Shown one piece after another: positions 15,601 through 47,800 of a DNA stretch of 64,000 nucleotides. A program made the position numbers and the translations under genes. Under the pieces are notes generated by a model. That model had not been told where the DNA came from and ran no database searches. It was given only the letters and a program-made list of their open reading frames with translations. Every line of letters begins with the position of its first letter. The first letter of the stretch is position 1. Source of the DNA: Romanomermis culicivorax (lineage: Eukaryota > Nematoda > Enoplea > Mermithida > Mermithidae); the NCBI GenBank assembly GCA_963922205.1, contig CAWUHX010000297.1:115001-179000 (forward strand), written 5' to 3'.

Positions 15601-18600
15601 AACTAATGATTCTGAAATTAAAGAATACTTTCTGCAGCAAAAGTTTGATTTTGGTTATATTATGGATTTCAATGGTGGAAAGCAAATCGGTAGTAAAGAT
15701 CAAACAAAACGTCTAGTGCCCGAATCTGAACCAGCTTTGTATACATTAAATGTAAGTTATGCAATGAAACGTGACTATGTCTGAGTTCCACATTACAGTA
15801 GTTTGATTCATTTTTCTCTTTTTAAGACTATGGTTAAATGTGGTCGAGTGCAACTTTTGACCCATCCATTGACAATGAATTACTTGTCTCATAAATGGTA
15901 AGAAGACAATTATTTTCCTTCGACAATCACTTCATCAAGTTAAATGTTAACAGGTTCACATATGGCATTTGGATTTTTCTATTCAATATAATAAGTTACT
16001 TATGTTTTGCTATATTTTTCACATACGGAATTTTGTTGTGGCATCAACAAATGAGGAACATTAGTTCGAATTACACAATGGAAATCCAGGTAAAAATAAT
16101 CATTTAAAAGTATTACTGCTGTCTTTCACTGCAACAGAATACAATAATTACAGTAAAACTGGTGCTAGTAAGATTTGAACCCTTCTCACTACAGCCACTG
16201 TCTCCTAACAGTGTTATGTTTAAGTCTCTGCTTAGGTCAAAAAACGTTAGCAATATAACTAACGAGTTGATCAGCTTGTATGCAACTAATTGCTGTAGGT
16301 CACTCAAAGGAGCTTGGAATGTGTAAAGGGCTGCTGCAGTGCAACAGTTCTTTAGGAGAACTAAACACAACCTTCAGTCACTACTCAGTAGCTGGAATCC
16401 AACAGCTTTCACCCAGAAAACTCTCAGGGTACTTCAGGGAACCTTACCCAATGGTCCTCATAAAGGTGGGCAATGTGAGATGCTGCAGCAGAATGGATAA
16501 ACACTAATTTGACAGCCGAACTTTACTGGCGTAAAACAACAATAACAGAAAATAAATGGTGGCGGCTCGCACAAAATAAACTAAATTATGAAAATGATCA
16601 TAAAATGTTACATATAGCCTTTTAAAGGCCGTCGTGTCCAGACAATGAGGCCATCTCCCCATCTTCACATTTTTATGGATGGGCTGCTTGCTACTGTAAG
16701 TGCATCCCCAACAACAGCTGCCAATGAGTTAACTGTTATGTTTAAAAGCTTTGCTTATGTCAAACAACACAAGCAATATGACTAGAAAGGGCTAGTGGCT
16801 TATACCCAACTAATTACCATAGGTCACTCAAAGGAGCTTCCTATTGATAAAGGGCTGATACAGGGCAACAGTTCTCTAGAACATTCGGTCGCTAATTAGT
16901 AACTCAAATGACACAAACTTGCAATCAAAAAGCAATCCGGGTTGCCCCAGATTCTTCTTGCAGGCTAACACAAAATATTAGAAATTCACTAAAATAATAT
17001 CCAGAAAGACCAGAGGCCTGCCCTGGTAGGGAATACAGTAAATATACATTTATGTAATTTTATTTATTTATGTAAATGAGGCTAGGGCTGTCGACTGTCT
17101 GTTTATTGGGTGGAACAGTACAAATATAAAAGTCGATGAAAGGGACTCATACTAGACCAACAAGAATTAGGATGACTTCTACTGTAAGTACATCCCCAAC
17201 ATAACAGGTGTTTATATGTCAGAGGATGGGGTATAGATAGACCTCCAGTAGTTCGGACCAAAGATCTCATAGGCATTTCGGAAAACTTTTGAAGGAAGTC
17301 TCTATTTGGTTCCAGAATGGAGCAGAACCATAAGAACGTTCAAAAATATGAGCTTATACGTTTGTTGACTGCATAGTCGACCGCCCTTGATACCCTGAGA
17401 TTTCTGAAGCTGCCTATATCTTTGGGGACACTCTTTATTATGAGACTTTGTATCACTAGCTAACACGAGAAGAACATTATAAATTAACAAACAACTGTGC
17501 CTTTCTGTGCTATTTTAAATTCCTTTTATTGTTAAAAAAGATGCATATCAATGAGGTGAAAGCCTGGGGACTTAGTGTTACAATCTTGGTGGCAGTAGTG
17601 AGACAGTGACTGTAGCAGGACTTTCACATGCTGTTTGATTAGTGACGATACAGAGTTGCCTAAACATACTTTGGTGGCTATATTCGGACAGTGGCTATAG
17701 TGGGATGGTGGCTATTGTGATATGGTGGCTATTGTGATATGGTGGTTGTAGCGAGACACAATCTAAGATTTGTACATTATATCACAAGGACAGCATTCTA
17801 TTGAGATTAATTGTGAATATGTTTTTCATAGAATGTGGCAAGTAAAATTTAAATTTAATTGGCAATAATGTAAAAAATTTATCTTATGAATGGAAATTAG
17901 TGAACTGACTCGACTAATCTTTGCTGCATTCAATTTTTATCCTCTCGCTTAGATTTTAGGTAGTTGCTGAGATAGTTTTAACAATTTTGTCCATAGTTTA
18001 CATGCGGCGATGCCAAGTTAAAGTTTTGTTAAAATCTAGTCAAGGTCTGAGGAGCTTTTCCCTTCCGCTAATAATACATTACCTGAAAAGATCACTCTTT
18101 ATATTACTAAAACTTCAGGGTGAACCGCCGCCTATAAATCTCACCATTTATTGTCGAATCACGTTAATTCTACTATTCACATTTTCGCTAATCTGCATAC
18201 TGAAAGAAATTTTCCAAATATATTGCAACGGCAGAGCATACTTTTCCGATTTGGTTAACTACGTCGAATGGGGTCTGTACGTGAGCGCTATCATTTTTTG
18301 TGCACCCCTTTTTTCGTCGCAACCAACCGTGCAATTTAATTGGGCGATCGGTAGTTTGGCATTATTTTTAACTTGGTTCAACATCCTTTTCTTCCTGCAG
18401 AGGTAATTCTATAATCCTTGATTTTAGCAGTAGAAAAAACGTATTGATATGAAATAATGCAAATTTTTCTGATCGTTAGAAGCATATGAATAATGATGTA
18501 TAAGCAGACTCTTATGTATGAAGTTGATGCTCTCCTCAACTGAAGTTAACATTTGGTCTATATGTCGAAATGAGACCTGGGTTAATTAGAGGATGAAGGG

Positions 18601-27642: not shown

Positions 27643-27646
27643 CAGT
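27643..27646. repeat. Target site duplication CAGT (left)
   Basis: CAGT directly precedes the TGTAACG terminus of the left LTR and recurs directly after the right LTR. Confidence 0.8.
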
Positions 27647-28555
27647 TGTAACGACCAGATTTGTGTGAGGTACTTTACTTCTAACCAACGGTCGCTATGG
27701 CGGGAACGAAAAGGGGCGCGGGCGGTACAATACGAGGCGATACGGCTTTACAATAATCGACGGCTGCTTTAGACGTCGATACGACAACAATACAAAACGC
27801 GTCTCGATTTATAATACGAACGGGGGCCTCGGTTTAAGTTGCTTTCGTACAATTGGCCGCTTGCAAATATATAAAAACGGACGGGGCGAGCGCGGAAGTC
27901 GAAAAATATAAAACCACAAGAATAATTAAAAATCAAGCTTTGCTTCTTCTTTTATATGGCGTTTTTGGCAACTCCCTGGGCGTCGCGGGAGGTCGAGCTT
28001 CTGTCCATCTTCTTCCGCCAATCGTCGTTTCCTGCTACGCTTTTTATGCTTTTCTTAGTTATGCCTTTCTAACGCTTTCCTGGTACTGTATGCTTTTTGT
28101 GCTTCGCTTGCTTTCTACGGTGGGCTTGGCCACACCTCTGTGCTTCTGTGCATGCTTCCTGTATCGGTTTCTCTGTATACACATGTTTTGTGGGGCCGCC
28201 GCTACCATTACACTTGAGACTACTGTCTGGCTGAGCTTCTACGTATTTTACTGTGTGCAGGTGTTGTTTACGATTTTTACGGGGGGGATTACTGTAGCTG
28301 TGGAATGTGTAGTTTAGTGTAGGTTCTAGGGGAACAGCTGCCGTTTGTGCAAATTAATTAGGGCATCTTAATTGGGCTACGAGGGTGTGAACGGATCAAA
28401 ATAAAGTACTTCACATAATTTTGTAGGAATGTTTGGGTGTGAATCCCAGACCCCCTTGAGACAATAAAATGCGAAAAATGAAATAATATCTAATAAATGT
28501 CTATCACATACAGTATGCTACATATTTACAGTACTGCTCTAGCAGGTACGTTACA
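27647..28555 (-). repeat. 3' LTR (left copy)
   Basis: 909 bases bounded by the perfect inverted termini TGTAACG and CGTTACA. Relative to the minus-strand genes this is the 3' LTR. On the + strand it holds TATATAAAA near 27868 and a long antisense frame with several hydrophobic segments (27853-28317). Both LTRs keep the frame, though this one has no ATG start and is probably chance. Confidence 0.9.
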
Positions 28556-28567
28556 TTTCCCCTCCTT
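28556..28567 (-). promoter_or_regulatory. Polypurine tract
   Basis: On the minus strand AAGGAGGGGAAA abuts the LTR start TGTAACG, the expected place for the plus-strand DNA primer. Confidence 0.8.
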
Positions 28568-28587
28568 GCGGAGTTGAATGTCCTCAT

Positions 28588-29811
28588 TCAAGGCTTTGGA
28601 GGTTGAGGAGGGGTGGGGGCAGTTTCGATGGGTGCTTTCCGAGGGCAGAAAGGGGTTGTCTCGTTAACATGTACTGTAAATGTAATATTCTTATGGGGGT
28701 GTTTGAGGGTAACGTTGGGGTACATGAAATTTTTAACTGTATAGGGCCCGTTTTGGCGAGGGAGGAATTTTGGAGTCAGCCCTTGTTTACACGAATGATT
28801 TTTGTAAAGAATCAGATCACCTGCCTTGTAATGTATGTTCTGAGCATGCTTGTTATACTGACGGGTATAGTGGTCCTGAGCTTTTTGTAAACTTTTCTGC
28901 ATGGTTGAGAGTGCTTCTGTAAAATGCGATTTTACACGAAGGGTGTAATCGTCTAAATCAACCATGTAGGACGTGGGGAAAAAATTTAAGGCTGCGTCTG
29001 ACGGCAGATTAGCTTGCCTACCGTGGAGTAATTCAAACGGGGGATACAAAGTGCTATCATTTTTATGAATGTTGATCGAAAAAACAGCATAGGGTAGATA
29101 AGTATCCCAATCAGTGTGATTTGAATTGATGTACATGCGGATACGGGTGGCTAGGGTCTGGTTGCAACGCTCAACTTCCCCATTGGCAATGGGATGGTAT
29201 GGGGTAGTATGAATTTTCTGAGTATTGCATAAACTGGTGATCCGTGAGAAGAGATCGGATACAAAATCAGAGCCACGATCACAATGGATGATTTTTGGGG
29301 ACCCATGACCGCAAACAATTTTGGTTAAGAATAGCTTGGCAATAGTGGCTGCAGTGATGTCAGGGGTCGGGAATGCCTCTACATACTTTGTGAAATAGTT
29401 GATGAAAAGGACAATGAATCGGTTGCCGTCTTCAGTGAGGTGTAATGGTCCCATGCAATCAACACCGACTCTATCAAATGGGCCAGTCGGCTGAATTGGT
29501 ACCAGATTTGCATGTAATTTGTGCTGGAGGGCTTTCTGTGTCTGGCATGGGTGGCAAGTTTTGCAGTAACATTTGATATCACGGCTCATTTTGGGCCAAA
29601 AATATTTTTGTCTGAGCAAGTGTAAAGTTTTTCGGGCAGCAAAATGACCTGTGAATTTGCTGTCAGGATGTGAGGCAATGAGTTGCTGGACCTGTGACTT
29701 GGGAATGTATAGTTTTGCTTGTTTGTCGACTATACGGATGAGGATGTTTTGATGCACTGCGAATTTGATCAGGGTAAGGGGGTGTTTTTGGGCGATTTTT
29801 GCTAAAATACT
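28588..29811 (-). pseudogene. Integrase of the LTR element
   Basis: Inserts the cDNA into the genome. The zinc-binding region has the motif GHFAARKT, QKYFWPKM and CxxC (CKTCHPC), but the first His-containing part looks altered. The catalytic core has Asp in VDCMGPL, Asp in HCDRGSDF and Glu in NGEVERCNQTL, so the DDE triad is present. The C-terminal part has a basic region, then a Pro-rich tail ending at 28588. The frame opens at 29811 but is offset by one nucleotide from the RNase H frame, consistent with a single-base lesion near 29811. It directly precedes the polypurine tract. Confidence 0.85.
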
Positions 29812-30413
29812 TTGACAGTTGGATCAGTACGTTGGAGTTCGGCAAAATTTTTTTGTTGCTCTTCTTGTTCAGTTGCTTCGGCCTCAAGAACAGAATTTAT
29901 GGTGGATATTTCAGGGTGGGTTTCTAATTGCTCGATATCAAAGGATTGCTTTGCTGTCTGTGAGAGGAATCGAGAAACTGCATCTGCGTTGCGGTTAGCA
30001 GTGCCTTTCTTAGGTCGAATGTCTAGCTGAATACCGGAGAGGGCTAATCCCCAACGGGCAATGCGAGGGGACGGGTTTTCCTTTTGTAAGACTGCCTGGA
30101 CTGCTGTATGGTCAGTGTGTACAATAACATGTTGCTGGAAAAGGTAGGGGCCGAAATACTTGACAAACTCAACTACTGCAAGGGTTTCCAACTCAGTGAT
30201 CGGGTAGTTGCGTTCTGCGGGTTTCAATGTGCGGCTCCCAAAAGCAATGGGGCGATACTGACCTGTACTGTCTAACTGACTGAGAATAGCGCCGATTCCG
30301 AGTTTTGAGGTGTCAGTTTGCAGAATAAACGGTTTTATGAAATCGGGATGCTTTAGTATTGGGGCATGAATGAGTAATTCTTTTAGCTTGGTGAATGCAT
30401 TTTGTTGTTTGGG
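29805..30413 (-). pseudogene. RNase H region of pol
   Basis: The frame reads PKQQNAFTKLKELL at its start, then LQTDTSKLGIGAIL, ITELETLAVVEFVKYF and VHTDHTAVQ, which are typical of Ty3/gypsy RNase H. In retroelements it degrades the RNA template. The frame is shifted against the RT frame at about 30413. The RT connection segment expected between YYRRFI and PKQQNAF is missing, which suggests a deletion of a few tens of bases plus a shift. Confidence 0.8.
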
Positions 30414-32100
30414 ATGAATCTTCGATAATACGAGGGTAGGCTTAGGAATGACTTAACTTCTTTTGAGCTTTTGGGTGTGGGTATGTCACAGATGGCCTGT
30501 ACCTTATGGAGGTCTGGTGAAATGCCTTGTTGAGAAATGACGTGGCCTAAGTATTGGACTTGGGGCTGGTAGAATTTGCATTTTTGTATAATTAGTTTAA
30601 GGCCTGCTTGTGAGAATCGGGCAAGAATAGTGTCTAAATGTTCCAGCATTTGGGCATGGGAGTCTGCGAATATCAAAACATCGTCGAGATATACAAGGCA
30701 TGTGTTCCATTGGAGTCTGGAAAGGATAACATCCATTAACCTTTGGAATGTGGCTGGGGCATTGGTGAGACCAAAGGGGAGGTAATTGAACTGATACTGG
30801 CCGGCTGAGCAGTTAAAGGCCGTTTTTTCTCTGTCTGCTTGTGCTATGGGAATGGAATAATATGCATTGAATTGGTCGAGGGAAGTAAAATATTTCATTC
30901 CATGTAGGGTGTCTAGAATTTCTTCTATACGGGGCAAGGGGTAGGTATCTTTTTTGGTTACTTTATTTAGACCTCGAAAATCAATGCATAAACGATGGCC
31001 TCCGTCTTTTTTTGGGACTAAAACTGCGTTGATACACCATGGAGAATTGCTCTGGCTTATGACACCTGCTGCTGCGAGTTGCTCAACCTCTGCTTGTATG
31101 ATTTGCTTTTCTTTTGGGGAAGTCGGATAAAGTTGTCTACGTATGGGTTGGGATCCATTGGTGTCAATTGTATGTGAAACGAGGGTGGTTCTACCTATGT
31201 CCATTTTGGATTTAGCATATAATGTAGGATACTTCGATAGGGCGCGTAGGAGTTGCATTTTCTCGGTTTCTGTTAGGTCACTGGAGGTTAAATTGACATT
31301 TTCTTTTAACCATGTGAATGTACCAAAACGGTTTGGCTGGTTTTTCGTTGAGGAGGTTACTTTAGTGGAAGCATCTTGTTTTGGGAAGTAATATGAGACT
31401 GTACCGATGCATGTTCCAGGGTAAAGAGTTTGGGCTCTGTCCTGTAAGTTTAAGACTGATATGCGTATGCGACTGTTTTGATTTTCGGAGACACAAGCTG
31501 CGAAATGGACTTTGGGATTCTGTTTGGGTTTCGGGGTGAATTCAAGCTGTTTGACCTGTAAGTACGATTTGGGCAAGGGGACAGTAAATTCAGTTACTGT
31601 ACGGGGTGGTAATTCTAATTTCTCGTCTAAATAAGTTCCACCGCGGGTCAAAAGAGGGCTATATTCTAGGCCATCACAGGGTAGTATGACATTGCCGAAT
31701 TTGACCTGGGACTCTTGATTGTCGATGGTATATTCCGAAAATCGACTAAGAAAGTTTTTGCCTAGAAGGATGTCTGCTGTGCAATCTTTTTGGACATGAA
31801 CCATTATTGTTTCCTGGATTGTTTGGGCTGTCACTGTGACAAAAGTGGTTCCTACAAAGTGAATCGGGAGATTATTGGCTGCTTTTGCTTGGACTAGCCG
31901 GGGTTTCACGTCTAACTGCAAAATTTGAGCAATCCGCGAATCAATGAGTGAGTAGACTGCACCAGTATCAATCATGCCTTTTGTGATTAATTTGCCGTTA
32001 AGTGTGATTGGAATATGAGGGGTATGTTTCTCAGGTACATTTTGGGGCGGCTTGTTTGACGCAGATTGGTGAATTTGATTAATGAGTTCGATTGCAGGAG
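30383..32100 (-). pseudogene. Aspartic protease and reverse transcriptase of pol
   Basis: Protease: GMIDTGAVYSLIDS near 31975 is the DTGA active site of retropepsins. Reverse transcriptase: the palm is marked by LVPKKDGGHRLCIDFRGLNK, FTSLDQFNAYYSI, FNYLPFGLTNAPATFQRLMD, and YLDDVLIF, whose YLDD is the catalytic box. This is clear Ty3/gypsy-type RT. The ATG at 31975 lies inside the protease; the same frame is open upstream through the glycoprotein tail, so the protease is joined to env rather than to gag. The frame ends early at 30383 because of a lesion after YYRRFIP. Confidence 0.88.
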
Positions 32101-34426
32101 TTTGGGGGGTATCAATATCGACAAGGACGTATTTCTGCTGCGTTTGTGCCCCACGACGATTAGCTAATTCTAAGAGAGCATGGCCGAATGATGAGGGAAT
32201 GGTCTCATGTAGATGTCTGTTGTTTGATGGTATTTTGTATGTATGTTCGTCTGTGGCATGATGCTTGGAAGAAGGGAAATATTTTCTGAGAACGAGAAAA
32301 GAATAAAAGACGCCTGCAATAACTACAGTAATAATGGCTAGATTGATACTGATCTGCAGAGGTCCTTTGAGTAAATTGTTTAATCAGTCTGTGAGACTTT
32401 GGGTGGTACCGGTTATTACATGTTCTATGCCTTGACCAGCGGGAGAGAGGGTATTTCCGAGTGCTTGGCCAATGCCTGAGATCATGTTGTAAACTGTATC
32501 GGAATTGAGAGACATTTGGGCGGTGTAATTGACGAGTTTTTTAACAACGTTTTCGAGTGTGTGAGTTTTGTAAATGTATTGTTTCAAAAAGAGTAAGTTG
32601 GTTGAAATAGTTGCAAGTTGATCATGAAAAATGGCAAGTGTATTAAAAAGGAAAAGAGAAAAATTTTGGTTCCAGACAATTTCTAAAGGTAAATTTGTGA
32701 CATGCGGGGATCCTGTTTCACTGACCCATGTATTATTCTGTTTGTAAAGGGCTACATGCATATGATGGCAGTCAACGGTTTGTGAAAAAGGGGTCAAATC
32801 CTTGCCTCCTGGATTCGAAAACATGAGTTTGGTTCCTACGAGAATGGGCAAAAGTTTGTAGTATGTTTGGTTGATTTTGTGGTTGTAAAAGACTTTGGAT
32901 GCGTTTACCTGCTTGCAGGGCCAGACTGTGAGGGCTTCTCCTGTGAATTCTCCTATGATGTCTGTTCGCTGTAGGAATGCACGCGCTCCAAGGGTTGCAT
33001 CAAGACGCAAAATTTGCTATATGAGATCAAGGTGACGCTGTGCCTGTCTGCATAAGTCATTCCATATGTTCTTGAAATTTTGAATTTCGAATTCCTGGAT
33101 TTTGTCTGCTAGATAATTTAGTTTCGCGTTAATGGGTTCAAAATCATCAAAATCGTAGAGTGTAGTATGGGTTTCGTTGGTTTTTGGGGTAAAAAATGCA
33201 TTACGATGTGGTGTGCTTTTGTCTAATTGTACAATAATGCCTTGTTTGGTTAGAATGCTGTCTTGGATTTCTGGGCAATTGGGGTTCGAAAAGAGTGTGT
33301 TTTTAACCGAGAATGCACCTTGTAGTTCTTCTATTATCATGTGGGTTTGTGTGAGTTCGATGATATGTGTGTTTTTGTATTCGAAGATGCATAAGTTTTC
33401 AAATGCTGTTTCATTCCAGATAATAGATCCGTCGGCTGTGACACAATGACCTGATGTTGGTTTGCATGACCCCAGGTCACCTAATGTACCTGTCATAGAT
33501 TTTCCATTCCAAGATGCTATTTGTCCTATTTCTATGATGATGTTAGTGACCAAGGTACAGTGGTTTGTACAACACCAAGTGTATTCTACGCTTAGGGAGT
33601 TGTTTGTTGACCAAAATCCTGGTTGGGTTTTGTATAATTTTTGACCGTTGTGTTCTTTGTCTATAACGATTGCCTTACAAACATGCGGGGTTAGATTTTC
33701 CATTTCGGTTTGGTCGAAGACAATACCTTTTGAGCCAAAAAATTCTGTATTAGTACAAGTTTTCCGTTTGCAAACACTGCATTTGTATGCATCTGTAATG
33801 TGGGGCTTAGTGGAAGGGATATAGATTTTTCCGAATGTCTGTACGGGTTTGTCTACTGTGGAAGGGGGCATGCATGATACAAGTTTTGGTATGCTGACTG
33901 AGTGACGGCTCAATGAAGTTCCACATATCTGAAATTGGGCACTACACGATGTGGGGATTATTATACAAAGAAAAATACAAAATATTGGCCAATAGAATGT
34001 TTTAGTGGAGGCGGCAGGGCACTGTGTTTTTTCGCTCTGATCGATTTGGCATGGCGAGTGTTGTCGTTTTGCGATTTTGAGCTGGGGGGTTGGCCGGTTT
34101 GAAATCTGAACATTCTGTAAAACTTTAGAAGTTGCGTCATGGGATGGGGTTTGGACTTGCTTACTTGTGGGGGTTGGTAATAGTGTTTGGCGGGGGTGGA
34201 ATTGGTAGGGTTCGGGAGTCAGGCTGTGTGAAAGAGACAGTATGTTGCGCCCTGCTTTTGATGGGGTTTTGGGGGTGGTGGGCGGCGTGGTGTCTTGCTT
34301 GCGGGGGATCTTGTAGCCTACGGGGATGGTGGGCCGCGATTTTTCGATTTTTACGGCTTCAGGCGTTGGGGGGTGGTGACATGGCGCACCAATCCGGTAC
34401 GTCCAGGTCAAGAACGTATTCATCAC
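32100..34426 (-). pseudogene. Envelope-like glycoprotein between gag and pol
   Basis: A single frame with two in-frame stops, TAG at 33017-33019 and TGA at 32384-32386. The N-terminal 150 codons are Pro/Thr-rich, followed by a hydrophobic signal-like segment (FYWPIFCIFLCIIIP), a Cys-rich ectodomain with several NxS/T sites (for example NNSL, NETA) and, past the second stop, one hydrophobic helix (about 32345-32300) with a basic stop-transfer end. This is the layout of a class of viral-type membrane fusion glycoproteins captured by LTR elements. I cannot assign the donor virus family. The frame starts in a +1 overlap with the end of gag and runs on into the protease. Confidence 0.72.
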
Positions 34427-35741
34427 TACGGCGGTGGGTAGTGGGCATAATGGTTCCTAAAGTAGTCTGAGGGCTGTTAGTTATGGTGGGTAATTTTGAG
34501 TAAAATGCGGGGTCATCAATGTCCATGAGGGGTTGGGGTTGCCTGTACTCAATGCAATTTTGAATATTACGACTCTGTTGATTCCGACAGTACCTGCTTG
34601 TATGACCTCTCTGCTTGCATATAAAACATTGAAAATTGGAGTAGGGTTTGGAAAGGCAGTTATCAGATCTATGTCCTGTTTGGGAGCAGTGGATGCATCG
34701 GCTTTTACAATCACGCGTACTGTGATTATTACGGAAACAGATTTCACATGATTTTCGGGTGCCTGCTGATTTACAATTACGAGCTACGTGTCCAATTTGT
34801 CCACACTGGAAGCATGTGGGTTGCCTGGGGCTGGTATTGTTCCTGTAAGCATTATTCCTACTGTAAGTGCTGTTACTGAAATTGTTGTTGCTACTTTGTT
34901 GTGGGGGTTGAGGTTTTTGTTTGATTTGCAACTGTAAATCTTTTACCTGTTGTTCTAACTGATGCCAAAGATCCTGTTGATCTGTATTTTTGGTTAGGGA
35001 AAAGATGGGTTCGGGTTTTGGGGGTATAAATGGAAGGGTGTTGGACTTTAACTCATTTCTAAGGATTTGCTGTTCAATGTAGGCTGCTTTGTCTGACATT
35101 TCTTTTAGAGTTGCGAACCTTCTATACTTAATTGCTTCCCTGATTTCGTTTTGCATGCCTTCTACAAAGAGGGGTTTTATGATCATTTCTCGTGCGTCTG
35201 TGTTAAAGTTAGGGTAGGTGAGGGTTGCGAGGTGTTCTAGATCAAATAAGAATTCGTTTACTGTTTCTGAACGCTTTTGTTTTCTTTCGCTTAAAAATTG
35301 TTGATGTAGCTCATTATCTCGATTGTTTGGGAAAAATGCCTGTTATGCGACTTTATACTGCTCGTATGTGTGGGGAGGGTTTTCAGAATTTGCTAAACTT
35401 TTGGATTTTGCTAACGCAGCTCCTCCTAAATGAATTTCTAAACATGCCAACTTTAATTGTAGGTCTGTATCTTTCATGCCTTGGAGTGCCATGAATTTTT
35501 CTAATCTTTTGTTCCATTCACCAAAATGTTGGGTCACGCCGCCCGTGAATACTGTAGGTTTCGCGTAGAAATTATTTGCCATGTTATTACAAATGTTTGC
35601 TGTTCTTAGATCATCTATTAGGGTAGGGTTTACTGTATTCTGATTCAATTGTGTGCATAGGGTACGAAAATGTTCTGAAAATAAATCGTTTATCTGTTCT
35701 CTAATGATGTCTCCTAAATGATCTTGCGTTTGGTGGGTCAT
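34359..35741 (-). pseudogene. Gag with zinc knuckles
   Basis: The frame starts at ATG 35741 (MTHQTQDHLGDIIREQINDLF region) and is interrupted once by an in-frame TAA at 35343-35345. Capsid-like helical sequence is followed by three or more CCHC-type knuckles (CFQCGQIGHVARNC, CIHCSQTGHRSDNC, CFICKQRGHTSRYC), plus a CEIC unit. Such knuckles bind genomic RNA. It ends at 34359 in a +1 overlap with env. A C6 run with CCC CCC A lies near the end and could serve frameshifting; this is inference. Confidence 0.82.
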
Positions 35742-35983
35742 TCTTGGTTTACGTTGGGATTTCTGCTTAAATGCTTCAATTTTGCTTCATGCTGTATTCG
35801 TTTAAATGTAGCACTTAATGTTTTGTTGGAGGGGATTTCCAGTTTGCTTTCTACGAATACTGTCTTACTGTAGGAAATGATTACTACTGTATTATCTAAT
35901 GCTTCTAAATGCCCGGATAAGAGTACACCTAATTGGGAGCAGGGAGTTCCAGTGGTTAACGGTATGGTACGGTCACCAAAATA
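35738..35983 (-). other. ATG-less open frame upstream of gag
   Basis: A frame open from the LTR end to 35738 stops in TGA that overlaps the gag ATG as ATGA. It contains no ATG. The sequence looks protein-like (TVVIISYSKTVFVESKLEIP) rather than low-complexity. It could be a relic or an alternatively reached reading frame; coupling of its stop to the gag start is possible but unproven. Confidence 0.35.
35966..35978 (-). promoter_or_regulatory. Primer-binding site candidate
   Basis: Five bases after the 5' LTR the minus strand reads TGGTGACCGTACC, complementary to a tRNA ending GGTACGGTCACCA. A similar tRNA-like end (GTATGGTCACCA) occurs at 53622-53633. Confidence 0.55.
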
Positions 35984-36897
35984 TGTAACGACCAGATTTG
36001 TGTGAGGTACTTTACTTCTAACCAACGGTCGCTACAGCGGGAACAAAAGGGGGCCTGGGGGGTACAATACGGGGCGATACGGCTTTACAATAATCGACGG
36101 CTGCTTCAGACGTCGATACGACAACAATACAAAATGTGTCTCGATTTATAATATGAACAGGGGGCCTCGGTTTAAGTTGCTTCCGTACAATTGGCGGCTT
36201 GCAAATATATAAAAACGGATGAAGCGAGCGCGGAAGTCAAAAGATATAAAACCACAAGAATAATTAAAAATCACGCTTTGCTTCTTCTTTTATACGGCGT
36301 TTTTGGCCACTCCCTGGGCGTCACGGGAGGTCGAGCTTCTGTCCATCTTCTTCCGCCAATCGTCGTTTCCTGCTACGCTTTTTATGCTTTTCTTAGTTAC
36401 GCCTTTCTAACGCTTTCCTGGTACTGTATGCTTTTCGTGCTTCGCTTGCTTTCTACGGTGGGCTTGGCCACACCTCTGTGCTTCTGTGCATGCTTCCTGT
36501 ATCGATTTCTCTGTATACACATGTTTTGTGGGGCCGCCGCTACCGTTACACTTGAGACTACTGTCTGGCGGGGCTTCTACGTATTTTACTGTGTGCAGGT
36601 GTTGTTTACGATTTTTACGGGGGGGGGGGATTACTGTAGCTGGGGAATGTGTAGTTCAGTGTAGGTTCTAGGGGAACAGCTGCCGTTTGTGCAAATTAAT
36701 TAGGGCATCTTAATTGGGCTACCGGGGTGTGAACGGATCAAAATAAAGTACTTCACATAATTTTGTAGGAATTTTTGGGTGTGAATCCCAGACACCCTTG
36801 AGACAATAAAATGCGAAAAATGAAATAATATCTAATAAATGTCTATCACATACAGTATGCTACATATTTACAGTACTGCTTTAGCAGGTACGTTACA
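35984..36897 (-). repeat. 5' LTR (right copy)
   Basis: 914 bases with the same TGTAACG..CGTTACA termini as the left LTR. It should drive transcription of the minus-strand genes; the minus strand has TATTATAAAT-like sequence in its 3' half. Differences from the left LTR cluster in the first 260 bases. Confidence 0.9.
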
Positions 36898-36901
36898 CAG
36901 T
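36898..36901. repeat. Target site duplication CAGT (right)
   Basis: Direct repeat of the 4 bases before the left LTR. Confidence 0.8.
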
Positions 36902-38051: not shown

Positions 38052-38139
38052 TCTAAATTGATCGATGAAATTCTACGAGTGATTCGACTCGCATCTTTTC
38101 TTTTTATTCGTCTAATCTGAACGTTTTGATCGTTTTCAT

Positions 38140-41100
38140 TTTCATATATTTGATATTTGATATTTTTGATATTTGATATTTTTGATATTTGATATTTTCG
38201 ATATTTGATATTTTTTATATTTGATATTTTTGATATTTTTGATATTTGATATTTTTGATATTTGATATTTTTGATAGTTGATATTTTTGATATTTGATAT
38301 TTTTGATATTCGATATTTTTGATATTTGATATTTTTGATATTTGATATTTTTGATATTTGATATTTTTGATATTTATTTGATATTTTTGATATTTGATTT
38401 TTTTGATATTTGATATTTTTGATATTTGATATTTTTGATATTTGATATTTTTGATATTTGATATTTTTGATATTTGATATTTTTGATATTTGATATTTTT
38501 GATATTTGATATTTTTGATATTTGATATTTTTGATATTTGATATTTTTGATATTTGATATTTTTGATATTTGATATTTTTGATATTTGATATTTTTGATA
38601 TTTGATATTTTCGATATTTGATATTTTTGATATTTGATATTTTTGATATTTGATATTTTTGATATTTGATATTTTTGATATTTGATATTTCTGATGTTTG
38701 ATATTTTTGATATTTGATATTTTTGATATTTTATATTTTTGATATTTGATATCTTTGATATTTGATATTTTTGATATTTGATATTTTTGATATTTGATAT
38801 TTTTGATATTTGATATTTTTGATATTTGATATTTCTGATGTTTGATATTTTTGATATTTGATATTTTTGATATTTTATATTTTTGATATTTGATATCTTT
38901 GATATTTGATATTTTTGATATTTGATATTTTTGATATTTGATATTTTTGATATTTGATATTTTTGATATTTGATATTTTTGATATTTGATATTTTTGATA
39001 TTTGATATTTTTGATATTTGATATTTTTGATATTTGATATTTTTGATATTTGATATTTTTGATATTTGATATTTTCGATATTTGATATTCTTGATATTTG
39101 ATATTTTTGATATTTGATATATTTGATATTTGATATTTTTGATATTTTTGATAATTGATATTTTTGATATTTGATATTTTTGATATTTGATATTTTTGAT
39201 ATTTGATATTTTTGATATTCGATATTTTTGATATTTGATATTTGATATTTTTGATATTTGATATTTGATATTTTTGATATTTGATATTTTTGATTATTTG
39301 CTATTTTTAATATTTGATATTTTTGATATTTGATATTTGATATTTTTGATATTTGATATTTTTGATTATTTGCTATTTTTAATATTTGATATTTTTGATA
39401 TTTGATATTTTTGATATTTGATATTATTGATATTTTTGATATATTTGATATTCTTGATATTTGATATTTTTGATATTTGGTATATTTGATATATTTGATT
39501 GTCTTGATATTTGATATTCTTGATATTTGATATTTTTGATATTTGATATTTTTGATATTTGATATTTTTGATATTTGAAATTTTTGATATTTGATATTTT
39601 TGATATTTGATTTTTTTGATATTTGATATTTTTGATATTTGATATTTTTGATATTTGATATTTTTGATGATATTTGCCATTTTTGATATTTGATATTTTT
39701 GATATTTTTGATATTTGATATTTTTGATATTTTTGATATTTTTGATATTTTTGATATTTGATATTTTTGATATTTGATATTTTTGATATTTGATATTTTT
39801 GATATTTGATATTTTTGATATTTGATATTTATGATATTTGATATTCTTGATATTTGATATTTTTGATATTTGATATTTTTGATATTTTTGATATATTTGA
39901 TATTCTTGATATTTGATATTTTTGATATTTGGTATATTTGATATATTTGATTATCTTGATATTTGATATTCTTGATATTTGATATTTTTGATATTTGATA
40001 TTTTTGATATTTGATATTTTTGATATTCGATATTTTTGATATTTTATATTTTTGATACTTGATATTTTTGATATTTGATATTTCTGATATTTGATATTTT
40101 TGATATTTGATATTTTTGATATTTGATATTATTGATATTTTTGATATTTGATATTTTTGATATTTTTGATATTTTTGATATTTTTGATATTTTTGATATT
40201 TGATATTTTTGATATTTGATATTTTTAATATTTGATATTTTCGATATTTGATATTCTTGATATTTGATATTATTGATATTTGATATTATTGATATTTGAT
40301 ATATTTGATATTTGATATTTTTGATATTTTTGATAATTGATATTTTTGATATTTGATATTTTTGATATTTGATATTTTTGATATTTGATATTTTTGATAT
40401 TCGATATTTTTGATATTTGATATTTGATATTTTTGATATATGATATTTTTGATTATTTGCTATTTTTAATATTTGATATTTTTGATATTTGATATTTTTG
40501 ATATTTGATATTATTGATATTTTTGATATATTTGATATTCTTGATATTTGATATTTTTGATATTTGATATTATTGATATTTTTGATATTTGATATTTTTG
40601 ATATTTTTGATATTTTTGATATTTTTGATATTTCATATTTTTGATATTTGATATTTTTGATATTTGATATTTTTGATGGTATTTGATATTTTTGATATTT
40701 AGTATATTCGATATATTTGATATTCTTGATATTTGATATTTTTGATATTTGATATTTTTGATATTTGATATTTTTGATATTTGGTATTTTTGATATTTGA
40801 TATTTTTGATATTTGATATTTTTGATATTTGATATTTTTGATATTTGATATTTTTGATATTTGATATTTTTGATATTTGATATTTTTGATATTTTTGATA
40901 TTTATTTGATATTTTTGATATTTGATATTTTTGATATTTATTTGATATTTTTGATATTTGATATTTTTGATATTTGATATTTTTGATATTTGATATTTTT
41001 GATATTTGATATTTTTGATATTTGATATTTTTGATATTTGATATTTTTGATATTTGATTTTTTTGATATTTGATACTTTTGATTTTTGATATTTTTGATA

Positions 41101-44100
41101 TTTGATATTTTTGATATTTGATATTTTTGATATTTGATATTTTTGATATTTGATATTTTTGATATTTGATATTTTTGATATTTGATATTTTCGATATTTG
41201 ATATTTTTGATATTTGATATTTTTGATATTTGATATTTTTGATATTTGATATTTTTGATATTTGATATTTTTGATATTCGATATTTTTGATATTTGATAT
41301 TTTCGATATTTGATATTCTTGATATTTGATATTTTTGATATTTGATATTTGATATTTTTGATATTTTTGATAATTGATATTTTTGATATTTGATATTTTT
41401 GATATTTGATATTTTTGATATTTGATATTTTTGATATCCGATATTTTTGATATTTGATATTTGATATTTTTGATAATTGATATTTTTGATTATTTGCTAT
41501 TTTTAATATTTGATATTTTTGATATTTGATATTTTTGATATTTGATATTATTGATATTTTTGATATATTTGATATTCTTGATATTTGATATTTTTGATAT
41601 TTGGTATATTTGATATATTTGATTATCTTGATATTTGATATTCTTGATATTTGATATTTTTGATATTTGATATTTTCGATATTTGATATTTTTGATATTT
41701 GATATTTTTGATATTTGATATTTTTGATATTTGATATTTTTGATATTCGATATTTTTGATATTTGATATTTTCGATATTTGATATTCTTGATATTTGATA
41801 TTTTTGATATTTGATATATTTGATATTTGATATTTTTGATATTTTTGATAATTGATATTTTTGATATTTGATATTTTTGATATTTGATATTTTTGATATT
41901 TGATATTTTTGATATTCGATATTTTTGATATTTGATATTTGATATTTTTGATAATTGATATTTTTGATTATTTGCTATTTTTAATATTTGATATTTTTGA
42001 TATTTGATATTTTTGATATTTGATATTATTGATATTTTTGATATATTTGATATTCTTGATATTTGATATTTTTGATATTTGGTATATTTGATATATTTGA
42101 TTATCTTGATATTTGATATTCTTGATATTTGATATGTTTGATATTTGATATTTTTGATATTTGATATTTTTGATATTTGATATTTTTGATATTTGATATT
42201 TTTGATATTTGATATTTTTGATATTTGATATTTTTGATATTTGATATTTTTGATATTTGATATTTTTGATATTTGATATTTTTGATATTTGATATTTGAT
42301 ACTTTTGATATTTGATATTTTTGATATTTGATAATTTTGATATTTTTGATATATTTGATATTCTTGATATTTGATATTTTTGATATTTGGTATATTTGAT
42401 ATATTTGATTATCTTGATATTTGATATTCTTGATATTTGATATTTTTGATATTTGATACTTTTGATATTTGATATTTTTGATATTTTTGATATTTTTGAT
42501 ATTTTTGATATTTTTGATAATTGATATTTTTGATATTTGATATTTTTGATATTTGATATTTTTGATATTTGATATTTTTGATATTCGATATTTTCGATAT
42601 TTGATATTTGATATTTTTTATATTTGATATTTTTGATTATTTGCTATTTTTAATATTTGATATATTTGATATTTGATATTTTTGATATTTGATATTTTTG
42701 ATATTTGATATTTTTGATATTTGATATTTTTGATATTTGATATTTTTGATATTTGATATTTTTGATATTTGATATTTTTGATATTTGATATTTTTGATAT
42801 TTGATATTTTTGATATTTGATATTTTTGATATTTGATATTTTTGATATTTGATATTTTTGATATTTGATATTTTTGATATTTGATTTTTTTGATATTTGA
42901 TACTTTTGATTTTTGATATTTTTGATATTTGATATTTTTGATATTTGATATTTTTGATATTTATTTGATATTTTTGATATTTGATTTTTTTGATATTTGA
43001 TATTTTTGATATTTGATATTTTTGATATTTGATATTTTTGATATTTGATATTTTTGATATTTGATATTTTTGATATTTGATATTTTCGATATTTGATATT
43101 TTTGATATTTGATATTTTTGATATTTGATATTTTTGATATTTGATATTTTTGATATTCGATATTTTTAATATTTGATATTTTCGATATTTGATATTCTTG
43201 ATATTTGATATTTTTGATATTTGATATATTTGATATTTGATATTTTTGATATTTTTGATAATTGATATTTTTGATATTTGATATTTTTGATATTTGATAT
43301 TTTTGATATTTGATATTTTTGATATTCGATATTTTTGATATTTGATATTTGATATTTTTGATAATTGATATTTTTGATTATTTGCTATTTTTAATATTTG
43401 ATATTTTTGATATTTGATATTTTTGATATTTGATATTATTGATATTTTTGATATATTTGATATTCTTGATGTTTGATATTTTTGATATTTGGTATATTTG
43501 ATATATTTGATTATCTTGATATTTGATATTCTTGATATTTGATATTTTTGATATTTGATATTTTTGATATTTGATATTTTTGATATTTGATATTTTTGAT
43601 ATTTGATATTTTTGATATTTGATATTTTTGATATTTGATATTTTTGATATTTGATATTCTTGATATTTGATATTTTTGATATTTTTGATAATTGATATTT
43701 TTGATATTTGATATTTTATATTTTTGATATTTGATATTTTTGATATTTGATATTTTTGATATTCGATATTTTTGATATTTGATATTTGATATTTTTGATA
43801 TTTGATATTTTTGATATTTGATATTTTTGATATTTGATATTTGATATTTTTGATATTTGATATTTTTGATATTTGATATTTTCGATTATTTGCTATTTTT
43901 AATATTTGATATTTTTGATATTTGATACTTTTGATATTTGATATTTTTGATATTTGATAATTTTGATATTTTTGATATATTTGATATTCTTGATATTTGA
44001 TATTTTTGATATTTGGTATATTTGATATATTTGATTATCTTGATATTTGATATTCTTGATATTTGATATTTTTGATATTTGATACTTTTGATATTTGATA

Positions 44101-47100
44101 TTTTTGATATTTTTGATATTTTTGATATTTTTGATAATTGATATTTTTGATATTTAATATTTTTGATATTTGATATTTTTGATATTCGATATTTTCGATA
44201 TTTGATATTTGATATTTTTGATATTTGATATTTTTGATTATTTGCTATTTTTAATATTTGATATTTTTGATATTTGATATTTTTGATATTTGATATTTTT
44301 GATATTCGATATTTTTGATATTTGATATTGGATATTTTTGATATTTGATATTTTTGATTATTTGATATTTTTGATATTTGATATTTTTGATATTTGATAT
44401 TTTTGATATTTGATATTTTTGATATTTGATATTTTTGATATTTGATATTTTTGATATGTTTGATATATTTGATATTCTTGATATTTGATATTTTTGATAT
44501 TTGGTATATTTGATATATTTGATTATCTTGATATTTGATATTCTTGATATTTGATATTCTTGATATTTGATATTTTTCATAGTTGGTATATTTGATATAT
44601 TTGATATTCTCGATATTTGATATTTTTGATATTTGATATTTTTGATATTTTTGATATTTTTGATATTTTTGATATTTTTGATATTTTTGATATTTTTGAT
44701 ATTTGATATTTGATATTTTTAATATTTGATATTTTTGATATTTGATATTTGATATTTTTAATATTTGATATATTTGATATATTTAATATTCTTGATATTT
44801 GATATTTTTGATATTTGATATTTTTGATTTTTGATATTTGATATTTTTGATTTTTGATATTTGATATTTTTGATATTTGATATTTTTGATATTTGATATT
44901 TTTGATATTTGATATTTTTGATATTTGATATTTTTGATATTTGATTTTTTTGATATTTGATACTTTTGATTTTTGATATTTTTGATATTTGATATTTTTG
45001 ATATTTGATATTTTTGATATTTATTTGATATTTTTGATATTTGATTTTTTTGATATTTGATATTTTTGATATTTGATATTTTTGATATTTGATATTTTTG
45101 ATATTTGATATTTTTGATATTCGATATTTTTGATATTTGATATTTTCGATATTTGATATTTTTGATATTTGATATTTTTGATATTTGATATTTTTGATAT
45201 TTGATATTTTTGATATTCGATATTTTTAATATTTGATATTTTCGATATTTGATATTCTTGATATTTGATATTTTTGATATTTGATATATTTGATATTTGA
45301 TATTTTTGATATTTGATATTTTTGATATTTGATATTTTTGATATTCGATATTTTTGATATTTGATATTTGATATTTTTGATAATTGATATTTTTGATTAT
45401 TTGCTATTTTTAATATTTGATATTTTTGATATTTGATATTTTTGATATTTGATATTATTGATATTTTTGATATATTTGATATTCTTGATATTTGATATTT
45501 TTGATATTTGGTATATTTGATATATTTGATTATCTTGATATTTGATATTCTTGATATTTGATATTTTTGATATTTGATATTTTTGATATTTGATATTTTT
45601 GATATTTGATATTTTTGATATTTGATATTTTTGATATTTGATATTTTTGATATTTGATATTTTTGATATTTGATATTCTTGATATTTGATATTTTTGATA
45701 TTTTTGATAATTGATATTTTTGATATTTGATATTTTATATTTTTGATATTTGATATTTTTGATATTTGATATTTTTGATATTCGATATTTTTGATATTTG
45801 ATATTTGATATTTTTGATATTTGATATTTTTGATATTTGATATTTTTGATATTTGATATTTGATATTTTTGATATTTGATATTTTTGATATTTGATATTT
45901 TTGATATTTGATATTTTTGATATTCGATATTTTTAATATTTGATATTTTCGATATTTGATATTCTTGATATTTGATATTTTTGATATTTGATATATTTGA
46001 TATTTGATATTTTTGATATTTGATATTTTTGATATTTGATATTTTTGATATTCGATATTTTTGATATTTGATATTTGATATTTTTGATAATTGATATTTT
46101 TGATTATTTGCTATTTTTAATATTTGATATTTTTGATATTTGATATTTTTGATATTTGATATTATTGATATTTTTGATATATTTGATATTCTTGATATTT
46201 GATATTTTTGATATTTGGTATATTTGATATATTTGATTATCTTGATATTTGATATTCTTGATATTTGATATTTTTGATATTTGATATTTTTGATATTTGA
46301 TATTTTTGATATTTGATATTTTTGATATTTGATATTTTTGATATTTGATATTTTTGATATTTGATATTTTTGATATTTGATATTTGATATTTTTGATATT
46401 TGGTGTTTTTGATATTTGATATTTTCGATTATTTGCTATTTTTAATATTTGATATTTTTGATATTTGATACTTTTGATATTTGATATTTTTGATATTTGA
46501 TAATTTTGATATTTTTGATATATTTGATATTCTTGATATTTGATATTTTTGATATTTGGTATATTTGATATATTTGATTATCTTGATATTTGATATTCTT
46601 GATATTTGATATTTTTGATATTTGATACTTTTGATATTTGATATTTTTGATATTTTTGATATTTTTGATATTTTTGATAATTGATATTTTTGATATTTGA
46701 TATTTTTGATATTTGATATTTTTGATATTTGATATTTTTGATATTCGATATTTTCGATATTTGATATTTGATATTTTTGATATTTGATATTTTTGATTAT
46801 TTGCTATTTTTAATATTTGATATTTTTGATATTTGATATTTTTGATATTTGATATTTTTGATATTCGATATTTTTGATATTTGATATTGGATATTTTTGA
46901 TATTTGATATTTTTGATTATTTGATATTTTTGATATTTGATATTTTTGATATTTGATATTTTTGATATTTGATATTTTTGATATTTGATATTTTTGATAT
47001 TTGATATTTTTGATATGTTTGATATATTTGATATTCTTGATATTTGATATTTTTGATATTTGGTATATTTGATATATTTGATTATCTTGATATTTGATAT

Positions 47101-47600
47101 TCTTGATATTTGATATTCTTGATATTTGATATTTTTCATAGTTGGTATATTTGATATATTTGATATTCTCGATATTTGATATTTTTGATATTTGATATTT
47201 TTGATATTTTTGATATTTTTGATATTTTTGATATTTTTGATATTTTTGATATTTTTGATATTTTTGATATTTTTGATATTTTTGATATTTGATATTTGAT
47301 ATTTTTAATATTTGATATTTTTGATATTTGATATTTGATATTTTTAATATTTGATATATTTGATATATTTAATATTCTTGATATTTGATATTTTTGATAT
47401 TTGATATTTTTGATTTTTGATATTTGATATTTTTGACATTTGATATTTTTGATATTTTCGATATTTTTGGTATTTGATATTTTTAATATTTGATATATTT
47501 GATATATTTAATATTCTTGATATTTGATATTTTTAATATTTGATATTTTTGGTATTTGATATTTGATATTCTTGGTATTTGATATTTTTGGTGTTTGATC
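38140..47600. repeat. 9.4-kb satellite of a 16-bp GATATTTTT/GATATTT unit
   Basis: The array alternates GATATTTTT (9 bp) and GATATTT (7 bp). Variants such as GATAATT, GATATTC and a GATTATTTGCTATTTTT marker recur, and blocks of variants repeat as higher-order units. The sequence has almost no G+C beyond the GAT guanines. On the minus strand the 16-bp unit has no stop in any frame and gives a 16-residue peptide period of the KYQKYQISKISNIKNI kind; such frames are artefacts. Both edges degrade gradually into unique DNA. Confidence 0.97.
44236..44765. repeat. Higher-order block of the satellite, first copy
   Basis: This block, with its marker variants (GATATTGGATATTTTTG, TTTTTCATAGTTGGTATATT, GATATGTTTGATATA), recurs almost unchanged 2,559 bp downstream (46795-47350). 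The second copy has a longer run of GATATTTTT units near 47200-47280. Confidence 0.85.
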
Positions 47601-47800
47601 TCTTTGATGTCTGAAACTTTCACTATATAGACGACAAAATCAACAAACACTATGTCCCAATAGCTCAATTCTAGCTGGTAACAGGCAGTATCAACAGTCA
47701 TGCTGAGTAAATAGTTATCTTTTTTTAGTGTCCTCGTACATTGGCATTTTGCTTCAGTCCACCAACATACTAGTTTTCAGAATCAAGTTTGTTTCGTATT

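What the first reader, a model, noticed from the sequence alone, without database searches (positions are those of the whole stretch)
28588..35741. LTR retroelement with envelope gene between gag and pol
The order read directly on the minus strand is gag, glycoprotein, protease, RT, RNase H, integrase, then polypurine tract and LTR. In Ty3/gypsy elements and retroviruses that carry env, it normally follows pol. Here only 32 bases separate integrase from the LTR, and the Cys-rich, signal-bearing, single-pass glycoprotein fills the gag-pol gap. I know of no described family with this order, but cannot search.
Basis: partly seen in the sequence, partly recalled or inferred. Interest (0 to 1): 0.85.

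Follow-up and report, generated by a model that had tools for sequence, protein, structure and literature searches.

The report
Retroelement lineage with gag-env-pol order
A virus-like jumping gene, probably in a parasitic nematode, belongs to a large and partly young family that carries its envelope gene between the capsid gene and the copying-enzyme genes in one continuous reading frame, an order that our literature searches found only in giant planarian elements.

Summary
A complete LTR element (27647-36897, minus strand, 4-bp target duplication) reads gag, glycoprotein, protease, RT, RNase H, integrase, LTR. The window copy is decayed: three in-frame stops, three frame changes, LTRs 4% apart. 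The order is not peculiar to it. The host genome (359 Mb, unnamed) holds at least 80 siblings at 92-93% identity in PR-RT, 55 of 80 in one open frame of 2,450 residues or more. Of the first 20, all read gag-env-PR-RT-RH-IN-LTR, 14 in a single frame, and 7 have identical LTRs. Env is constrained like gag and pol (dN/dS 0.13-0.14 against 0.12-0.13). Env also precedes RT in 8 of 9 more divergent relatives found through Env and 20 of 20 found through RT; Env and RT diverge in step. Env matches the Monjiviricetes fusion-glycoprotein family. But the order is in print: giant Burro elements of planarians (PMC6431247). This is a compact, diverse lineage of that rare kind, probably in a nematode; that Env tethers Pol is inference.

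The parts
35984..36897 (-). 5' LTR (914 bp)
   Evidence: 873 of 909 ungapped columns identical to the other LTR, 5 gap columns; TG..CA ends
27647..28555 (-). 3' LTR (909 bp)
27643..27646 (.). target-site duplication CAGT, left
36898..36901 (.). target-site duplication CAGT, right
35961..35978 (-). candidate primer binding site, starting TGG 5 nt inside the 5' LTR; tRNA not assigned
   Evidence: sequence; inference
34359..35741 (-). gag: N part and four CCHC knuckles (34814-34587); in-frame stop at 35343-35345 in this copy
   Evidence: upstream of env in 20 of 20 siblings (gagN 92-95%, gagC 93-95% identical)
34001..34456 (-). Pro/Ser/Thr-rich linker between nucleocapsid and signal segment (env frame); its frame differs from gag in this copy, not in the 20 siblings examined
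33935..34000 (-). hydrophobic signal-like segment opening Env
   Evidence: same segment in 17 of 20 sibling linkers (3 not anchored by my pattern)
32354..33934 (-). Env ectodomain; one stretch PF24664-like; stops at 33017-33019 and 32384-32386 in this copy
32276..32353 (-). Env membrane segment, in frame with protease
   Evidence: 7 of 7 siblings
31976..32275 (-). Env tail / spacer into protease, no ATG in the frame before 31975
30383..31975 (-). protease (DTG at 31969) and reverse transcriptase (YLDD at 30691)
29802..30452 (-). RNase H (frame change against RT in this copy)
28588..29823 (-). integrase with HHCC-type zinc motif and GPY motif (28749); frame change against RNase H in this copy
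28556..28570 (-). polypurine tract abutting the 3' LTR
   Evidence: sequence

Best explanation
The window holds an old, decayed copy of an endogenous retrovirus-like element of the Ty3/Gypsy type. Its lineage took up a glycoprotein of the negative-strand RNA virus (borna/nyami/chuvirus) type and encodes it inside one Gag-Env-PR-RT-RNaseH-IN polyprotein. Shown: the order; a single frame in many siblings; an internal signal-like segment after nucleocapsid; an Env membrane segment about 100 residues before the protease active site (no ATG between them in the window copy); purifying selection on Env equal to Gag and Pol; recent insertions; env before RT in divergent subfamilies. Inferred: full-length RNA is translated as one chain; the internal signal sends Env into the ER and signal peptidase frees Gag on the cytosolic side; the Env membrane segment leaves PR-RT-RH-IN on the cytosolic side, tethered to Env, so that Env carries Pol into budding particles where the protease frees it. 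The particles are probably infectious from cell to cell.
For: Pfam domains and order. Complete element with 4-bp duplication. From 34241 to 30642 the env/pol frame has 2 stops while the other two have many; the 136-codon stretch from the second env stop to the first ATG of the pol frame is open in 25 of 5000 shuffles. A metagenome relative, P0121, aligns across the position of the first env stop. Genome: 80 siblings, open frame of 2,450 residues or more in 55 of 80; the Env piece finds 149 others, 61 of 149 in such frames. Order in 20 of 20 siblings, all pieces tested in one frame in 14 of 20; env end, envB, TM-tail and PR-RT collinear in one frame in 7 of 7. dN/dS gag 0.12, Env 0.13 and 0.14, TM-tail 0.16, PR-RT 0.12, IN 0.13. 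LTR pairs identical in 7 of 20, 4-bp duplications in 14 of 20. Divergent lineages: of 9 at 44-67% Env identity, gag upstream in 9 and PR-RT downstream in 8; env upstream of RT in 20 of 20 further places, in frame in 18. The 11 env-bearing RTs put in a tree form one clade; env and RT identities correlate, Spearman 0.94.
Against: No RNA or protein data; topology and processing are inference. Only one stretch of Env matches PF24664; the piece before it (33017-34426) matches no Pfam family and had no protein hit, and the fold prediction failed (pLDDT 38). No NPGP (2A) motif and no R-X-K/R-R site in the five linkers inspected, so how Gag is freed or made in excess is open. Six of 20 siblings have a frame change, 88 of 149 env-bearing siblings lie in shorter open frames, and one of seven TM-tail pieces has a stop. 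C150's place in the RT clade has support 0.41 only. Splice signals that could alter expression exist.
Confidence: 0.68

Rival explanations
1. Env lies in a removable intron: the full-length RNA gives Gag-Env-Pol or Env, while a spliced message joins gag to protease and gives Gag-Pol.
For: The second-best donor (34164) and second-best acceptor (32286) of the window element flank env; Cer1 of C. elegans uses host splicing for its cerv message (PMC10309623, passages).
Against: In the window copy that pair does not join the frame open at the donor to the pol frame; an acceptor as good arises in 97 of 2000 shuffles of the 520-base region. Siblings were not scored for splice sites. The frame through env stays open in many siblings.
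Confidence: 0.12
2. Env no longer serves entry but acts inside the cell, as a membrane anchor for assembly of Gag and Pol.
For: The Env-Pol fusion would put Pol on the membrane; nothing here tests fusion activity.
Against: The ectodomain pieces are kept under dN/dS 0.13-0.14 with family-level similarity to viral fusion proteins, more than an anchor alone would need.
Confidence: 0.15
3. A one-off chimera: the glycoprotein was inserted into gag-pol in this copy only.
Against: 20 of 20 siblings and the divergent relatives share the layout. Inside the element one search found only a 30-base, 73% repeat pair and a 21-base imperfect palindrome, no nested terminal repeats.
Confidence: 0.01
4. Gag and Env-Pol are separate products linked by a programmed frameshift in the gag/env overlap seen in the window copy.
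For: Gag and env frames overlap by 98 nt in the window copy.
Against: In 20 of 20 siblings the gag pieces and the first env piece share a frame with each other, and in 17 of 20 also with PR-RT, so the change belongs to this copy.
Confidence: 0.04

Closest known systems
Burro / GYPSM1 elements of planarians (Schmidtea, Dugesia), PMC6431247
   Same: Gypsy-like; gag with CCHC knuckles; env in frame between gag and protease in one polyprotein; env hits mononegavirus fusion glycoproteins (section 7).
   Different: Burro exceeds 30 kb with a polyprotein of about 4,900-5,100 residues and extra domains (BCL2-like, BIR, ankyrin, MATH, dUTPase-like). Here the window copy is about 9.3 kb, sibling open frames are most often 2,484-2,486 residues, and only gag, env and pol domains were found.
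Errantivirus / Metaviridae (gypsy), ICTV profile PMC7879559
   Same: LTRs, PBS and PPT positions, PR-RT-RH-IN order, GPY motif in integrase, RT nearest Ty3 among solved structures.
   Different: ICTV places Env downstream of integrase; here it is upstream of protease.
Anakin BEL/Pao element of mosquitoes, PMC7642597
   Same: LTR element that captured a chuvirus-type glycoprotein (passages).
   Different: BEL/Pao pol, not Gypsy. The passages I saw do not state the env position in Anakin.
Atlas virus of hookworm (Belpaoviridae), PMC9094657
   Same: Nematode element with one polyprotein of 2,828 residues that includes an Env related to those of a negative-strand RNA virus family (passages).
   Different: Gag-Pol-Env order with Env last; class II phlebovirus-type Env.

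Membership tests
Metaviridae / Ty3-Gypsy | two LTRs, PPT next to 3' LTR, short target duplication | tested here: met
   4-bp duplication also in 14 of 20 siblings
Metaviridae / Ty3-Gypsy | pol order PR-RT-RH-IN | tested here: met
Metaviridae / Ty3-Gypsy | RT closest to Ty3/Gypsy; GPY/F motif in integrase | tested here: met
   4ol8 Ty3 RT best PDB hit, E 1.2e-60; GPY motif. That GPY/F is a hallmark is stated in PMC12440569 (part 2 of 5)
Metaviridae / Ty3-Gypsy | Env, where present, downstream of integrase (ICTV) | tested here: not met
   integrase ends 32 bases before the LTR; env upstream of PR in the window and siblings
Burro-type (env in frame between gag and pol) | env between gag and PR in one polyprotein | tested here: met
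   (open frame in DNA; the protein itself was not observed)
Burro-type (env in frame between gag and pol) | giant size with BCL2/BIR/ankyrin/MATH domains | tested here: not met
   about 9.3 kb; no such Pfam match on the seven window ORFs scanned
Burro-type (env in frame between gag and pol) | RT/Env common ancestry with Burro | not testable with these tools
   no Burro sequence was held
Monjiviricetes fusion glycoprotein (PF24664) | profile match over curated cut-off | tested here: met
   35.1 bits against 27; sibling piece 45.8; 68 of 68 scored places in the genome over cut-off, 0 of 14 control genomes
Monjiviricetes fusion glycoprotein (PF24664) | fold of the ectodomain | tested here: inconclusive
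   model pLDDT 38; no Foldseek match at E <= 0.001, best a bornavirus G at 0.044

The most novel reading that the evidence does not exclude
Gag-Env-Pol in one chain is an old, stable third genome plan for enveloped retroelements, shared by nematode and planarian lineages, in which Env's membrane segment rather than Gag delivers Pol into the particle, so Gag:Pol stoichiometry is set by membrane topology and signal-peptidase cleavage instead of frameshifting.
Probability: 0.28. Interest if true: 0.87.

Novelty: new variant of a known kind. Interest (0 to 1): 0.72.

Why it matters
Apart from one report on giant planarian elements, the descriptions of LTR retroelements that I saw put env after pol. 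A compact, diverse, partly young lineage with env inside the polyprotein frame shows that the plan is viable and was kept while the lineage diversified (RT down to about 51% identity to the window's; Env down to about 35%). It makes questions testable: how Gag, Env and Pol are separated, whether Env carries Pol, and how often negative-strand RNA virus glycoproteins turn retrotransposons into enveloped viruses.

Tried and rejected
Siblings in IMG/VR: 5 scans and one of genome contigs gave no confirmed locus. The env N piece had no hit at E <= 0.001 in 5.8 billion proteins; solved-structure searches of the env pieces gave one hit at E 0.48 and none. NCBIfam and PHROGs gave nothing useful for Env. 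Structure prediction of an env piece failed (pLDDT 38), so one search is not used as evidence. Splice-out of env: scored on the window copy, not supported; the splice weights there are recalled approximations. Among the 120 listed Pol homologues (of 168) none lists PF24664 in its precomputed domains; 17 of 120 have a protease motif with at least 60 residues upstream, and two of these (P0032, P0044) have a hydrophobic stretch there that I judged not Env-like by eye. That search could not see proteins longer than 1,165 residues. Troyka was considered and dropped: no env (PMC12440569, outline and parts 1-2 of 5). A contrast set of env-free relatives was wanted: (P0001 as query) lists 50 matches, several in the same clade; upstream DNA of 15 of them was asked for and not given, so no env-free control was examined.

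Full report
WHAT IS THERE. On the minus strand of the window lies a complete LTR element, 27647-36897. The two LTRs (909 and 914 bp) agree in 873 of 909 ungapped columns, begin TG and end CA, and are flanked by the same 4 bases, CAGT. A polypurine tract abuts the 3' LTR and integrase ends 32 bases before it. Reading 5' to 3' the domains are: Gag with CCHC knuckles (four by motif), a proline/serine/threonine-rich linker, a hydrophobic signal-like segment, an ectodomain (14 Cys in the 305 residues after that segment up to the first env stop; 3 and 5 glycosylation sequons in the two env pieces), a membrane segment, a tail of about 100 residues, aspartic protease, RT, RNase H and integrase with a GPY motif.

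THE GLYCOPROTEIN. The piece 32384-33010 matches Pfam PF24664 Monjiviricetes_fusion (E 5.2e-9, over the curated cut-off) and PF06208 Borna virus G (1.7e-5, below its cut-off). A protein search with the stop-to-stop form of that piece found two relatives at E <= 1: P0121, a metagenome fragment, 55% identical over 84 residues and itself a PF24664 match (E 4.3e-12), and P0122, a Romanomermis culicivorax protein 81% identical over 54 residues. P0121 aligns to both env pieces of the window, so they are one protein in that relative.

THE FRAME. The env frame runs on, without a frame change, through the membrane segment and tail into protease and RT; from 34241 to 30642 it has two stops while the other frames have many. 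There is no ATG in that frame between the membrane segment and the protease active site, except the one at 31975 that adjoins the active site, and the 136-codon stretch from the second env stop to that ATG is open in 25 of 5000 shuffles. The window copy is nevertheless broken: stops at 35343-35345, 33017-33019 and 32384-32386, and frame changes at gag/env, RT/RNase H and RNase H/integrase, in keeping with LTRs 4% apart.

SIBLINGS. The own-genome search answered first (359,112,060 bases, 595 contigs; 81 scored of 8,550 candidates). Besides the window copy it lists 80 matches of the PR-RT piece at 92-93% identity; 55 of 80 lie in an open frame of at least 2,450 residues, most often 2,484 or 2,486 (counted). 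The env piece finds 149 others (150 scored of 3,072 candidates), 61 of 149 in such frames and 88 in shorter ones. In the seven sibling loci first fetched, the end of env part A, env part B, TM-tail and PR-RT lie in one frame at the same spacing, 7 of 7. For the first 20 listed siblings I fetched an upstream and a downstream piece each: 20 of 20 read gagN-gagC-start of env ... PR-RT-RNase H-integrase-LTR, and in 14 of 20 all these pieces share one frame; the other six have a frame change somewhere. Env part B was itself seen in 14 of these 20 (seven, seven more among the places); in the other six I saw only the start of env, at the same distance from PR-RT. In 20 of 20 gag and the start of env share a frame with each other, so the gag/env frame change of the window copy is decay of that copy, and the family is built as a single Gag-Env-Pol chain.

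AGE AND SELECTION. In the same 20 siblings the LTR pair is identical in 7 and 98.3-99.9% identical in 13 (in C42 and C61 the alignment covers only 782 and 586 bases, and in C70:1168379 and C383 it runs past the LTR end); a 4-bp duplication is found in 14 of 20 (one of the six without, C577, lies at a contig end). Between the window copy and siblings mean dN/dS is 0.12 for gagC (n 20), 0.13 for the end of env part A and 0.14 for env part B (n 7 each), 0.16 for TM-tail (n 7), 0.12 for PR-RT (n 7) and 0.13 for integrase (n 19; shorter matches were dropped). Siblings are close to one another, so these are nearly one comparison repeated; the point is that env is as constrained as the rest. The signal segment is present in 17 of 20 linkers (three were not anchored by my pattern) and the membrane segment in 7 of 7 (one of the seven TM-tail pieces has a stop, and one of the 17 linkers has one; in these seven the only Met of the TM-tail piece is residue 133 of 136, a few residues before the protease active site).

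DEEPER RELATIVES. A PF24664 search of the genome scored 68 of 2,320 candidates, all over the cut-off, with 0 of 14 control genomes ringing. I examined 10 of the 68, chosen for differing match ranges and frame lengths. One, C16, belongs to the window's own family (env core 91% identical). The other nine have env cores 44-67% identical; gag lies upstream in 9 of 9 and PR-RT downstream in 8 of 9 (C36 ends after the membrane segment). Gag, env and the start of PR-RT are in one frame in C147, C150, C382, C337, C18 and C201, though C18 has a stop between env and protease and C201 a shift between protease and RT; C1a and C1b, like C16, have shifts. An independent search with P0003, the metagenome RT nearest to the window's and carrying no env itself, scored 61 of 8,989 candidates; in the top 20 an env core lies upstream of RT in 20 of 20, in the RT frame in 18, at 61-69% identity to one divergent core (C150) and 35-39% to the window's env piece. 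Gag was not checked for these 20. In an RT tree of 130 tips (FastTree) the 11 env-bearing RTs placed there (the P0003 set was not among them) form one clade with no metagenome tip inside, support 1.0 without C150 and 0.41 with it; P0003 joins next (0.919). Env and RT identities rise and fall together (10 lineages, some near-duplicates, 45 pairs, Spearman 0.94; 1 of 2000 label shuffles reaches it). Env has thus most likely travelled with RT since before these lineages split.

HOW IT MOST LIKELY WORKS. Shown by sequence: a single frame, internal signal-like segment, ectodomain, membrane segment, then enzymes, under selection. Inferred from topology: translation of full-length RNA gives one chain; the signal sends Env into the ER, signal peptidase separates Gag, and the enzymes stay on the cytosolic side of the Env anchor until the protease cuts them free in the particle. 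This resembles the way alphavirus and flavivirus structural polyproteins are laid out (recalled, not tested). How Gag is made in excess, if it is, remains open; no NPGP motif was seen in the five linkers inspected.

WHAT IS KNOWN. ICTV states that Metaviridae Env, where present, lies downstream of integrase (PMC7879559, whole text). [quoted passage not shown] Capture of such glycoproteins by LTR elements is known from mosquito BEL/Pao Anakin (PMC7642597, passages), and a 2023 survey found no clear capture of Jingchuvirales glycoprotein by Gypsy elements (PMC10084718, passages). A nematode single-chain element, Atlas virus, has Gag-Pol-Env (PMC9094657, passages). Ten searches of the paper library (listings, with passages of a few papers) showed me no nematode gag-env-pol element; Chary and Hayashi 2025 on envelope-carrying retrotransposons is not held (citation seen) and could contain one.

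LIMITS. Counts from the genome are lower bounds because only the best candidates are scored. Only one stretch of Env has family-level similarity. The host is inferred. No expression data.

VERDICT. Real, conserved and partly young; a new, compact and diverse variant of a rare published architecture, not a first.

Noticed in passing
window 38125-47590: A 9.4-kb array of a 16-base unit (TTTGATATTTTTGATA), GC 0.14-0.16 and GC skew 0.6-0.8 over 40001-48000, starts 1.2 kb beyond the 5' LTR.
   Followed up: no
window 27838-28317 and 36176-36664, + strand: Both LTRs hold an open frame of 159-162 codons antisense to the element, with hydrophobic stretches; chance not tested.
   Followed up: no
window 7797-8875 and 17960-18406, + strand: Ankyrin-repeat exons and, 9 kb on, an open frame with several hydrophobic segments and no Pfam match, perhaps one TRPA-like channel gene (recalled likeness).
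   Followed up: no
G000 C122:531119/539528, C2:2953815/2962216, C26:1370791/1379182, C180:404/8769/17134, C293:389439/396896/404349: Copies in tandem at about 8.4 kb (7.5 kb in C293) spacing, as if neighbouring elements share an LTR.
   Followed up: no
G000 C122:531119-532693: One sibling lies in an open frame of 3,612 residues, over 1,000 longer than the usual 2,486.
   Followed up: no
P0032, P0044: Two metagenome Pol proteins have a hydrophobic stretch ending about 27-36 residues before the protease motif; not Env-like by eye.
   Followed up: partly
window 57353-57623: Two tandem copies of a 130-base unit, 97% matches.
   Followed up: no
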